Notes under the pieces: model-generated
Seen by the model: only the letters and a program-made list of their open reading frames with translations
Databases searched by the model: none
Told to the model about the DNA's origin: nothing
In this document: one piece after another, positions 31,588-47,107 of the stretch
Position numbering within the stretch: the stretch's first letter is position 1
Layout: each line of letters begins with the position of its first letter
Assembly: GCF_016806835.2 (NCBI RefSeq)
Contig: NZ_CP086111.1
Location: 4,209,471 to 4,273,470, forward strand
Direction: 5' to 3'
Source of the DNA: Skermanella rosea
GTDB lineage: Bacteria > Pseudomonadota > Alphaproteobacteria > Azospirillales > Azospirillaceae
Length of the DNA stretch: 64,000 nucleotides
Program-made: the position numbers and the translations under genes

Positions 31588-31612
31588 CCGCGCGCAACGA
31601 CGATACCCCTTC

Positions 31613-31646
31613 GGTCCCCGCTCGCGCGGGGGCCGGTTTCGTTTTT
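31613..31646 (+). terminator. Rho-independent terminator of the solute-binding protein gene
   Basis: 9-bp stem GGTCCCCGC / GCGGGGGCC (31613-31621 and 31626-31634, one G-T pair), 4-base loop, then a T-rich run (TTTCGTTTTT, 31637-31646). It starts 25 bp after the stop codon. Confidence 0.8.
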
Positions 31647-31667: not shown

Positions 31668-31769
31668 GCCGTAGGTCGGCCTCGGCCGAAGGCCGACGCC
31701 GACATCATGGCCGAAACGTCGATTTGGAGCGTCCGCGTTCGTCCTTGCGGGCGAAGGCCGATTTACGAT
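31668..31769 (-). repeat. 102-bp dispersed palindromic element, copy A
   Basis: Aligns without gaps, 87 of 102 bases, to the reverse complement of 46931-47032. Its left end is GCCGTAGGTCGGCC, the same terminal repeat as the other copy; the right end has drifted (GGCCGATTTACGAT). Internal arms GTCGGCCT / AAGGCCGAC could fold into a second hairpin. It lies between two converging genes. One frame keeps a similar peptide in both copies (GVGLRPRPTYG), which probably reflects sequence identity rather than a real protein. Confidence 0.85.
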
Positions 31770-44023: not shown

Positions 44024-46891
44024 ATGGGTATCCGTACAGTCTTCAAGCTCGGCAATGTCTGGGACCAGGGTTTCGCGGCCGAGATCCTGGTGATCAACGA
44101 CGGCCCGGAGACCGTGACCGACTGGCGTCTGTCGTTCGCAGCGCCCTGGGTCATCCAGTCCTGGTGGAACGTCACCGCGCTGCCCTCGCCGACGGGGGTG
44201 ACCACCTTCGGCAATGTCGGCATGAACGGGACCCTGGCGCCCGGCCAGAGCGCCAATATCGGCTTCACGGCGCAGGGCACCCCGGCGGAGCCGGTGTTCC
44301 TGCCGTCCGCTCCCGGACAGGCCGACGCGATGCCATACCTGACGGTGACCGACGGCTTCGCGGTCGAGGGGGATGCCGGCACCGCGCCGCTGACGTTCGA
44401 CCTCAGCCTGTCGCAGGCGTCGGCGACGCCGGTCACGGTGCGTTGGGAGACGGCCGCCGGCGGCGCCACCGCCGGGGCCGATTACCGGACCGCCGGCGGC
44501 ACCGTGACCTTCGCCCCGGGCGAGACGAAGGCTGCCGTCCGGATCGATCTCACCGGCGACACCGCGGCCGAGCTGAACGAGACGCTGCGGCTGGTGGTCA
44601 AGTCGGCCGAGGGGGCCGTTCCGGTCCGCTGGCAGGCGACCGGAACGATCCATGACGACGACGGCCCGTCGCCCGCGGCGCCGGGCGTGGTCGCCGACGG
44701 CTTCCTGTCCACCCGCGGCAACGAGATCGTCGATGCCGCCGGCACGCCGGTCCGCCTGGCCGCCGTCAATTGGTTCGGCCTGGAGTCCCTGCGCGCCTCG
44801 CCGGACGGGCTGGATGTTCGGAACTGGCAGGACATGATGAAGCAGATGGCCGACGCGGGCTTCAACGCGATCCGCCTTCCCTTCTCGTCCGAACTGCTGG
44901 ACGGCAAGCCTCCGGAAAACATCAGCGGCACCCTCAACCCGGACCTGATCGGGCTCGACGGCCTCGGAATCATCGACAAGATCGTCGAGCATGCCGGGCG
45001 GATCGGGCTGCGCATCATCCTCGACCATCACCGCAGCGCCGCCGGCGACGGTCCGAACAAGAACGGCCTGTGGTACGAGGGCGCCCATACCGACCAGGAA
45101 TGGATCGACGACTGGGTGATGCTGGCCCAGCGCTACAAGGGCAACAGCACCGTGGTCGCCGCCGACCTGCACAACGAGCCGCACGGCCCGGCGACCTGGG
45201 GCGACGGCAATTCCGCCACCGACTGGGAAGCGGCGGCCGAGCGGGCCGGCGCGGCGATCCAGGCGGTCAATCCCGACTGGCTGATCCTGGTCGAGGGGAT
45301 CGAGAGCTACAAGGGAAGCTGGTACTGGTGGGGCGGCAACCTGCAGGGCGTCGCCGACGACCCGGTCGAACTGCCCGTCGCCGGCAAGCTCGTCTACTCC
45401 CCCCACGACTATCCCAACTCCGTCCATCCGCAGCCGTGGTTCCAGGGCGACGGCTACGCCGCGGATCTGCAGGACCTGTTCGACACCCAATGGGGCTTCA
45501 TCGCGCGGCAGAACATCGCCCCCGTGCTGCTGGGCGAGTTCGGCACCAAGCTGAACGACCCGAAGGACCTGGTCTGGCTGTCGAAGCTCACGGCGACACT
45601 GAACGGCGATCTGGACGGCGACGGCGCGACCGACGCCGGCCAGCCCACGTCCGGGCTGTCCTGGGCCTGGTGGTCTTGGAACCCGAACTCCACCGATACC
45701 GGCGGCATCCTGGACGCCGACTGGCGCACCGTCCTCCCGGAGAAGCTGGCGGCCATCGCCGCCCTCCGCGGCACCGCCTTCGCCGCCGACGACGGTGGCT
45801 CCTTCGGCGACGGCCCGGTCGGGCTGACACTTGCCGGAGGCGCCGGGGCCGACCTGCTGCGCGGCGGTGCCGGAAGCGACCTGATCCAGGGCGAGGGCGG
45901 CCACGACCGGATCTTCGGCGGTGACGGCGACGACCGCCTCTACGGCGGTACCGGCAACGACCGGCTGGAAGGCGGTGCCGGAAGCGACCTGATCGACGGC
46001 GGTCCGGGCATCGACACCGCCGTATGGACGGGTCCCCGCCGACAATACGCCGTGACCTTCGACACGGGCGGCGGAGCGGTGTCCGGGCCGGACGGTGCGG
46101 ACACCGTGCGCGGGGTTGAGCATCTGGTCTTCGCCGACGGCCGCTACGTGACCGATACCGGGGACACCGCGGCGCAGGTCCACCGGCTCTACGGCGCGGC
46201 CCTGGACCGCAGGCCGGACCCCGACGGCCTGCTCGCCTGGAAGGCGGCCCTGGACGCCGGAGCGCTGACGCTCGCCCGGGCGGCCGACGGTTTCATCGGG
46301 TCCGAGGAGTTCCGGTTCCACTATGGTCCGCTGGACGACCGGGGCTTCGTGGAACAGCTCTACCGCAACGTCCTCCATCGCGAGGGCGAGGAAACGGGCG
46401 TGTCCAACTGGGCCGGCGCGCTGGGCGCCGGCCTCACCCGGGCCGAAGCACTGGTCGGCTTCTCGGAATCGGGGGAGAACGTCCAGCGGACCGCTCCCGT
46501 CATCGAGCAGGGACTCTGGCTGCGCGACGATCACGCCGCGGCGGTGGCCCGTCTCTACGACAGCGCGTTCGACCGCCTTCCCGACGCCGGAGGGCTGGTC
46601 GCCTGGACGGCGGCGGTCAAGGCCGGCATGACGCTGCACGAGGCCGCCGGAGGGTTCATCGGCTCGAACGAGTTCCAGCAACGCTACGGCGCGGTGGACA
46701 ACGCGGGGTTCGTCGACCTCCTGTACCGCAACGTGCTGGACCGCCAGGGCGATCCGGACGGCCTGCGGAACTGGACCGGCGCCCTGGACGCCGGCATGAC
46801 CCGGACCGAGGCGCTGGTCGGTTTCTCCGAATCGGTCGAGCACAAGATGCAGCGGGCTCCGTACATCGACGACGGGATCTGGTTCGCCTGA
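44024..46891 (+). CDS. Secreted modular cellulase: CBM2 - Calx-beta - GH5 - RTX - DUF4214
   Basis: 955 residues. Order: CBM2-like domain (1-90, DWRLSFAAPWVIQSWWN), Calx-beta (105-215, GADYRTAGGTVTFAPGET), GH5 domain (220-580) with acid/base E385 (DLHNEPHG) and nucleophile E505 (LLGEFGTK), RTX repeats (605-665, GGDGDDRLYGGTGNDRLEGG) and DUF4214 repeats (680-955, VHRLYGAALDRRPDPDGL). No Sec signal peptide is seen; the RTX repeats imply type I secretion. It should cut beta-1,4-glucan outside the cell. A 12-bp palindrome (43946-43957) precedes it. No T1SS genes lie nearby. Confidence 0.9.
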   Translation: MGIRTVFKLGNVWDQGFAAEILVINDGPETVTDWRLSFAAPWVIQSWWNVTALPSPTGVTTFGNVGMNGTLAPGQSANIGFTAQGTPAEPVFLPSAPGQADAMPYLTVTDGFAVEGDAGTAPLTFDLSLSQASATPVTVRWETAAGGATAGADYRTAGGTVTFAPGETKAAVRIDLTGDTAAELNETLRLVVKSAEGAVPVRWQATGTIHDDDGPSPAAPGVVADGFLSTRGNEIVDAAGTPVRLAAVNWFGLESLRASPDGLDVRNWQDMMKQMADAGFNAIRLPFSSELLDGKPPENISGTLNPDLIGLDGLGIIDKIVEHAGRIGLRIILDHHRSAAGDGPNKNGLWYEGAHTDQEWIDDWVMLAQRYKGNSTVVAADLHNEPHGPATWGDGNSATDWEAAAERAGAAIQAVNPDWLILVEGIESYKGSWYWWGGNLQGVADDPVELPVAGKLVYSPHDYPNSVHPQPWFQGDGYAADLQDLFDTQWGFIARQNIAPVLLGEFGTKLNDPKDLVWLSKLTATLNGDLDGDGATDAGQPTSGLSWAWWSWNPNSTDTGGILDADWRTVLPEKLAAIAALRGTAFAADDGGSFGDGPVGLTLAGGAGADLLRGGAGSDLIQGEGGHDRIFGGDGDDRLYGGTGNDRLEGGAGSDLIDGGPGIDTAVWTGPRRQYAVTFDTGGGAVSGPDGADTVRGVEHLVFADGRYVTDTGDTAAQVHRLYGAALDRRPDPDGLLAWKAALDAGALTLARAADGFIGSEEFRFHYGPLDDRGFVEQLYRNVLHREGEETGVSNWAGALGAGLTRAEALVGFSESGENVQRTAPVIEQGLWLRDDHAAAVARLYDSAFDRLPDAGGLVAWTAAVKAGMTLHEAAGGFIGSNEFQQRYGAVDNAGFVDLLYRNVLDRQGDPDGLRNWTGALDAGMTRTEALVGFSESVEHKMQRAPYIDDGIWFA

Positions 46892-46930
46892 CTGGAATCA
46901 GTGTTGTCGCACAATGATTTAGAACAATTC

Positions 46931-47032
46931 GCCGTAGGTCGGCCTTCGCCCGCCAGGGCGAACGCCGACGCCCTGCATCAACGCTCCGGCCATGCTGTCG
47001 GCGTCGGCCTTCGGCCGAGGCCGACCTACGGC
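46931..47032 (+). repeat. 102-bp dispersed palindromic element, copy B
   Basis: Perfect 14-bp terminal inverted repeats: GCCGTAGGTCGGCC at 46931-46944 and GGCCGACCTACGGC at 47019-47032. Inner arms could form two hairpins. It aligns without gaps to the reverse complement of 31668-31769 (87 of 102 bases). It lies between the end of the cellulase gene and the end of glnE. It encodes no transposase, so it would need one in trans if it is a mobile element. Confidence 0.9.
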
Positions 47033-47107
47033 GACCCACTCACGACCACTGTGCCGGAACACTGGCGGGATACTGCCGGAAAGACGACCTCGCCAAGCGG
47101 CGTCGCG

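What the first reader, a model, noticed from the sequence alone, without database searches (positions are those of the whole stretch)
31668..31769. Dispersed 102-bp palindromic element, copy A
Seen directly: 31668-31769 aligns without gaps to the reverse complement of 46931-47032 at 87 of 102 positions; the first 37 bases are identical. Left end GCCGTAGGTCGGCC is shared with both ends of the other copy. Both copies lie between the 3' ends of converging genes. Size, terminal repeats, lack of coding capacity and placement suggest a MITE or REP-like family that may also act as a bidirectional terminator. This copy is the more decayed one (right end mutated).
Basis: partly seen in the sequence, partly recalled or inferred. 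Interest (0 to 1): 0.75.

Follow-up and report, generated by a model that had tools for sequence, protein, structure and literature searches.

The report
Palindrome pair inside a miniature transposon
A short DNA repeat scattered through a soil bacterium's genome turns out to be a known type of palindrome pair packed inside a tiny jumping element that often lands exactly on the stop codons of genes and leaves those stop codons intact.

Summary
The 102 bp is not the mobile unit. It is a 98-bp REPIN: two inverted GTAG-headed REP palindromes around a conserved 27-nt linker. A RAYT gene (NF047646), frameshifted here and open in G003, sits beside a related REPIN. In many copies this core lies inside outer inverted repeats, giving a unit of most often 180 or 188 bp. 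The same ends close a 1,506-bp IS630-family insertion sequence present four times in this genome. At 4 of 10 tested insertions a relative without the unit has a single CTAG where the carrier has C-TA-[unit]-TA-G, the IS630 signature. In 18 of 37 units an end coincides exactly with a gene's TAG stop. Outer arms decay while the core persists: copy B keeps one clear and one weak arm, copy A none. Both the MITE and the REP readings hold, as a chimera; the terminator idea is unsupported.

The parts
31670..31767 (-). Copy A: 98-bp REPIN core (core model on the minus strand), no outer arms detectable
   Evidence: nhmmer 89 bits; no arm on either side above the 5-bit cut
31671..31703 (+). Copy A, intact REP palindrome with 5'-GTAG head
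   Evidence: sequence; alignment A1
31704..31730 (.). Copy A linker (27 nt), decayed
31731..31766 (-). Copy A, second REP, decayed head (GTAAATC on the minus strand)
46933..47030 (+). Copy B: 98-bp REPIN core
46934..46969 (+). Copy B, REP 1 with GTAG head
46970..46996 (.). Copy B, conserved 27-nt linker
46997..47029 (-). Copy B, REP 2 (inverted) with GTAG head
46899..46916 (+). Copy B, left outer terminal repeat, decayed (12 of 18; under the HMM cut). The orthologous copy in G003 keeps it
47047..47064 (-). Copy B, right outer IS630-type terminal repeat (16 of 18)
31611..31646 (+). Separate intrinsic-terminator-like hairpin of the gene upstream of copy A (not part of the element)

Best explanation
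The 102-bp repeat is the core of a chimeric miniature transposon. The core is a REPIN: two inverted GTAG-headed REP palindromes of the kind that RAYT transposases process. It has been captured between IS630-type terminal inverted repeats, giving a non-coding unit of most often 180 or 188 bp (both TAs counted). An IS630-family transposase acting on the outer ends moves the whole unit into CTAG sites and duplicates the TA. The unit's first base after the TA is G, so insertion into a TAG stop codon preceded by C rebuilds the stop; this lets it accumulate at gene 3' ends. Afterwards the outer arms erode while the core persists, and some cores collapse to a single palindrome. Copies A and B are old insertions: B keeps one clear and one weak arm, A keeps only the core. 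Shown here: anatomy, family size, matching IS, alleles without the insertion, stop-codon overlap, arm loss in orthologues. Inferred: which transposase moved the unit, the order of capture, and that copy A itself arrived this way. A RAYT role is inferred from adjacency only.
For: Core anatomy is conserved in 32 aligned copies. Outer arms average 88% and 91% majority identity while bases just outside fall to 45-48% (37 units). The outer-repeat pattern with at most 1 mismatch has 22, 10, 48, 1 and 0 hits in G000, G002, G003, G004 and G001, with 0 for the backward control in all five. Four 1,506-bp IS copies in G000 (both TAs counted; 0 or 2 mismatches among them) have the same ends, each within C-TA...TA-G. 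Their ORF is an IS630 transposase (NF033545, 246 bits, cut-off 100; DDE_3). One IS end matches the MITE right end at 26 of 28. In 4 of 10 chosen G003 insertions a relative has a single CTAG at the junction (sites 2, 3, 7, 8), in a fifth TTAG (site 9). 18 of 37 units end exactly on a TAG stop, against 7 of 70 background CTAG sites (Fisher against the 56 sites outside gene interiors, p = 2e-4). RAYT beside a related REPIN in G000 and G003. Arm loss with the core kept in orthologous pairs, e.g. L028 (none) and L267 (both).
Against: Of 101 well-conserved cores 41 have both arms, 19 one and 41 none; the second-best core of all (L002) has no arms, so movement of the REPIN alone is not excluded. Only 15 of 37 armed units have exact CTA...TAG borders. 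Of the 10 test sites, 1, 6 and 10 lack the element in relatives but have altered junction bases, site 4 is occupied in G002 and site 5 is not clean. G003 has the most uniform copies, yet no pair of these ends about 1.5 kb apart is in its list at 1 mismatch or fewer; it is the genome where the RAYT is open. Copy A shows no arm, and no clean empty allele was found for it.
Confidence: 0.85

Rival explanations
1. Plain REPIN/BIME family: the RAYT alone spread the 98-bp core, and the outer arms are just a favoured target palindrome into which REPINs insert.
For: RAYT with a related REPIN beside it. 41 of 101 good cores have no detectable arm. Copies are most uniform in G003, where the RAYT is open (mean pairwise core identity of the 30 best: 0.969, against 0.903 in G000 and 0.926 in G002). 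A published account describes REP dimers inside palindromes as insertion targets (PMC3733652, section 7). One further outer-repeat place (L336) may have both arms without a core (read by eye; no core hit above 2.4 bits).
Against: Relatives lack the arms and the core together, with a single CTAG left. Of 8 further outer-repeat places read, 4 hold clear core remnants (L330, L332, L334, L335), 4 do not (L329, L331, L333, L336), and L333 resembles an IS end. None of 13 arm-less copies tested shows a clean gain of just 98 bp; the three readable ones (L003, L075, L270) are longer insertions, two of them at CTAG and TTAG. In G002, which has the family, the exact-repeat scan found no RAYT beside a REPIN of this family.
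Confidence: 0.1
2. Functional host element: the core is kept as a transcription terminator or mRNA 3'-end protector, and mobility is secondary.
For: Strong placement at 3' ends: 65 convergent, 50 tandem, 7 divergent and 3 unresolved of 125 copies, 0 inside called genes. Core identity in orthologous pairs 94.4% against 77.9% for the adjoining 60+60 bases (22 pairs). Strong fold. Slight excess of covariation over shuffles.
Against: Target choice can explain placement: of 70 background CTAG sites 49 are intergenic, 7 are stops and 14 lie inside genes, although most of the DNA is coding. No T-run after a hairpin around copy B. Copy A's upstream gene already has a terminator-like hairpin, and that site has no element in G003. 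Covariation is small: 3 cells of 927 changed on both sides.
Confidence: 0.15
3. Both enzymes move it: the IS630 transposase the armed form and the RAYT the bare core, so the family uses two unrelated transposases. (This overlaps with the best explanation, which leaves a RAYT share open.)
For: The evidence for the first rival together with the IS630 evidence; L002 has the second-best core and no arms.
Against: No clean REPIN-only gain found at 13 sites; several copies without one or both arms have orthologues that keep them.
Confidence: 0.25

Closest known systems
REPINs (REP doublets forming hairpins; Bertels and Rainey 2011, PMC3116915, passages seen)
   Same: Two inverted REPs around a spacer, extragenic, tens of copies, RAYT gene beside a matching pair in the same genome
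   Different: Conserved linker and fixed length; often embedded in IS630-type arms; insertions with a TA duplication at CTAG
GTAG-tagged REP dimers, HH type (Di Nocera 2013, PMC3733652; author name recalled; passages, sections 7 and 15)
   Same: GTAG ends outward, dimer of two different units with conserved spacer, convergent and tandem 3'-end placement, TAG of an end used as stop codon; a few families sit inside longer palindromes (e.g. A. variabilis GTAG-15)
   Different: The section read describes the outer palindromes as targets and names no transposase for them; here they match the ends of a resident IS630-family IS and are absent together with the core in relatives
IS630/Tc1-mariner MITEs (mechanism: ISY100, PMC2170065, passages; CTAG preference of IS630: Tenzen and Ohtsubo 1991, seen only as a title in that reference list)
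   Same: Under 300 bp, no coding capacity of its own, terminal repeats of a resident IS630-family IS, TA duplication inside CTAG
   Different: Interior is a REPIN of the kind found beside a RAYT gene; apart from the ends, only short or weak matches to the IS

Membership tests
REPIN / GTAG REP dimer | Two inverted palindromes, each with GTAG head, 20-100 bp apart | tested here: met
   in copy A one head is decayed
REPIN / GTAG REP dimer | High copy number, extragenic | tested here: met
   51 places in fetched G000 sequence; 0 of 125 inside called genes
REPIN / GTAG REP dimer | RAYT gene in the genome next to the same kind of REP | tested here: met
   gene frameshifted in G000, open in G003; none of this kind found in G002 by the exact-repeat scan
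REPIN / GTAG REP dimer | RAYT gene flanked by inverted REPs on both sides (as in PMC2817692, passages) | tested here: not met
   exact heads found only as one pair on the upstream side in L039, L084 and L085; decayed heads downstream not sought
REPIN / GTAG REP dimer | Unit mobilised by RAYT | tested here: inconclusive
   0 of 13 arm-less sites show a clean 98-bp gain; 6 of the 13 gave nothing readable
IS630-type MITE | Short non-coding unit with terminal inverted repeats of a resident IS630-family IS | tested here: met
   for the family in G000; copy B partly (one clear arm), copy A not met; no such IS listed in G002 or G003
IS630-type MITE | TA duplication, CTAG target | tested here: met
   4 of 10 exact CTAG, 1 TTAG; 15 of 37 exact borders; 4 of 4 IS copies
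IS630-type MITE | Moved in trans by the IS630 transposase | not testable with these tools
   needs a transposition assay
Bidirectional terminator | Hairpin followed by T-run on both strands | tested here: not met
   (consensus scan around the two window copies only)

The most novel reading that the evidence does not exclude
A REP palindrome pair has escaped dependence on its own single-strand (HUH-type) transposase by gaining the ends of a DDE element, and can be moved by two unrelated transposases. Its ends are such that landing on a CTAG stop codon rebuilds the stop, a safe harbour at the ends of genes.
Probability: 0.3. Interest if true: 0.7.

Novelty: new variant of a known kind. Interest (0 to 1): 0.5.

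Why it matters
REP palindromes are among the common bacterial repeats, and how their populations persist is an open question (passages of PMC8049555). A REPIN carried by IS630 ends offers one concrete route: spread without RAYT. It also gives a testable reading of published cases where REP dimers sit inside longer palindromes. Insertion that rebuilds the stop codon can explain placement at gene ends by target choice, without assuming a terminator function.

Tried and rejected
Rfam gave nothing at gathering thresholds. The 10-base head as a marker was dropped: 108 hits against 102 in the backward control. A plain RAYT-driven REPIN was the working model until conserved flanks appeared. A clean empty site for copy A failed: G002 has a collapsed single palindrome there, and G003 lacks the whole stretch. 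Bidirectional terminator: no support. Copy uniformity against RAYT state (open in G003, broken in G000, none of this kind found in G002) fits a RAYT role for G003, but G002 is more uniform than G000; three genomes cannot decide, and the fetched G002 and G003 copies were taken partly from the best scores.

Literature. Among their listings I saw no paper whose title or abstract start describes a REPIN inside an IS630 MITE or such repeats in Skermanella. Six papers were opened, by passages or named sections only.

Limits of the counts. Three of 125 copies without a called gene on one side were left out of the ratios. Gene calls come from my own codon-usage script. Some background loci overlap each other or the window, so a few gaps and CTAG sites may be counted twice. 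The 10 insertions were chosen by me from G003 units with both arms, several of them because a gene end was close. The average identities keep all 22 pairs; four (L013/L076, L029/L275, L076/L074, L275/L074) have doubtful orthology, and without them, by hand from the same rows, the figures are 94.8% core and 84.6% adjoining bases (18 pairs).

Full report
Observation. Copy A (31668-31769) matches the reverse complement of copy B (46931-47032) at 87 of 102 positions, with the first 37 identical. Both lie between converging genes. Copy B as query against its own genome (G000, 7.76 Mb, 7 contigs) gives 40 distinct places, which is all the candidates that were scored (40 of 272 seeds); copy A has E = 7.7e-29. 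In the G000 sequence that I fetched there are 51 distinct copies, 42 of them full length.

Identity of the host. Contig lengths tie G004 to Skermanella stibiiresistens SB22 and G002 to Skermanella mucosa.

Core anatomy. Each 98-bp core is two inverted palindromes, both starting 5'-GTAG and separated by a 27-nt linker. The fold is strong. In 32 copies 97.1% of pair cells are kept, but shuffles already give 96.8% and only 3 of 927 cells changed on both sides, so covariation is weak support. This is the layout of a REPIN or GTAG head-to-head REP dimer (PMC3116915 passages; PMC3733652 passages and section 15).

RAYT. A REP-associated tyrosine transposase gene (NF047646, 154.9 bits, cut-off 80) lies about 60 bp from a divergent member (L039). 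It is frameshifted close to its conserved HWNP motif. The corresponding gene with the same kind of REPIN beside it is open in G003. In both, exact heads are found on the upstream side only. A second, intact RAYT in G000 has its own, different REPIN family. All 5 genus genomes have at least one RAYT over the cut-off. G001 and G004 show no copy of this family, and the best RAYT of G002 stands beside another REPIN family.

Outer arms. Reading the flanks of the full-length copies showed a second layer of conservation: TAGTGGTCCTGCACAGTGTTTTTGATGA... on the left and the inverse of TAGTGGCTCGGCACAGTGGTTTTGAT... on the right. In 37 units with both arms, the arms average 88% and 91% majority identity, the parts of the core 94-99%, and the bases just outside 45-48%. 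Unit lengths, both TAs counted, run from 155 to 211 bp; 15 of 37 are 180 and 7 are 188. A pattern for the outer 18 bases with at most 1 mismatch hits 22 times in G000, 10 in G002, 48 in G003, once in G004 and never in G001; the backward control gives 0 in all five.

The insertion sequence. Four pairs of these ends in G000 enclose 1,506 bp (both TAs counted), and these four stretches differ from one another by 0 or 2 bases. Each sits in C-TA...TA-G. The 395-aa ORF is an IS630-family transposase (NF033545 246 bits, cut-off 100; DDE_3). One IS end matches the MITE right end at 26 of 28 bases. No such 1.5-kb pair appears in the lists for G002 or G003. Similar DNA at 60-80% identity is on 162 plasmid records, 41 of which cover at least 80% of the query; Rhizobium and Bradyrhizobium lead.

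Target sites. I joined the flanks of 10 chosen G003 insertions and searched four relatives. In sites 2 and 3 (G000) and 7 and 8 (G002) the relative has one CTAG where G003 has C-TA...TA-G around a unit of 180 or 188 bp. Site 7 lies inside another repeated REPIN and its match is only 78%, so its orthology is less sure. Site 9 has TTAG in G002. Sites 1, 6 and 10 lack the element but the junction is altered. Site 4 is occupied in G002, and site 5 is not clean. IS630 is reported to prefer TA in CTAG (title of Tenzen and Ohtsubo 1991 in the reference list of PMC2170065), and the related ISY100 duplicates TA (passages).

Stop codons. In 18 of 37 armed units one end coincides exactly with the TAG stop of a called gene. 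Of 70 CTAG sites elsewhere in fetched loci and the window 7 are stops, 49 intergenic and 14 inside genes (Fisher of 18/37 against 7/56, p = 2e-4). Public annotation agrees in one case: on S. mucosa plasmid pSM-3 a CDS ends at 247279 and the arm starts at 247277. Because the unit starts with G after the TA, the stop is rebuilt. Over 125 copies from three genomes, 65 are convergent, 50 tandem, 7 divergent and 3 unresolved, none inside a called gene; comparison gaps of 40 bp or more are 16, 102 and 60.

Decay. By a profile of the arms (decoy maximum 2.3 bits, cut 5), 41 of 101 good cores have both arms, 19 one and 41 none; of 14 poor cores 1 has both and 13 none. Arm-less copies are more often shared between species in the fetched sample (23 of 54 against 9 of 42; p = 0.03), and L028 without arms has an orthologue with both (L267). 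Of 13 arm-less copies tested for empty sites none shows a clean 98-bp gain. L003, L075 and L270 are longer insertions (L003 at CTAG, L075 at TTAG). L002 and L009 have a collapsed or partial core in the relative. L018 and L222 are unclear, and the other six gave nothing readable. Collapse to one palindrome is also seen at copy A's site in G002 and inside an armed unit (L334).

The two window copies. Copy B keeps a clear right arm and a weak left arm (46899-47064). Its orthologue in G003 has both arms, and G002 keeps only a right-half remnant. Copy A has no detectable arm. So B is a member of the chimera, while A is assigned by its core only.

Verdict. The family is best explained as a REPIN captured in an IS630-type MITE. 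Movement by IS630 transposase is inferred from ends and target duplications, and a further RAYT contribution is open. PMC3733652 reported REP dimers inside longer palindromes and TAG ends used as stops (sections 7 and 15), so the parts have precedents. The matched IS and the empty alleles are what is added here.

Noticed in passing
L040:2890-3693 (G000:C1:4897389-4898192): Second RAYT gene, intact, next to two copies of its own REPIN family (GTAGGTTGCGCC...GGCGCAACCTAC); a related pair is also near a long Y1 transposase gene in L041.
   Followed up: partly
Query positions 1950-2032; G002:C1:956648-956737 and many places in G000, G001, G002, G004: Third REPIN family (GTAGGTCGGCTAGAGCGAAGCG...) present in all four searched genomes and close to the G002 RAYT; it contains a CTAG into which the miniature element seems to have inserted at least once (site 7), so one REPIN is nested in another.
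   Followed up: partly
G000:C3:193740, 260008, 329384 (L031-L033): Three near-equal Y1_Tnp (IS200-like) matches in 438-aa open frames, plus a broken fourth near C3:314334.
   Followed up: no
G002 at copy A's site, at L002's site, and L334: The two-palindrome core repeatedly collapses to a single palindrome of about 30-34 bp, probably by deletion between short direct repeats within the core (inference).
   Followed up: partly
window 44024-46891: Large gene with a cellulase-like domain and repeated C-terminal units (read by eye, no family search); its repeats give many side matches.
   Followed up: no
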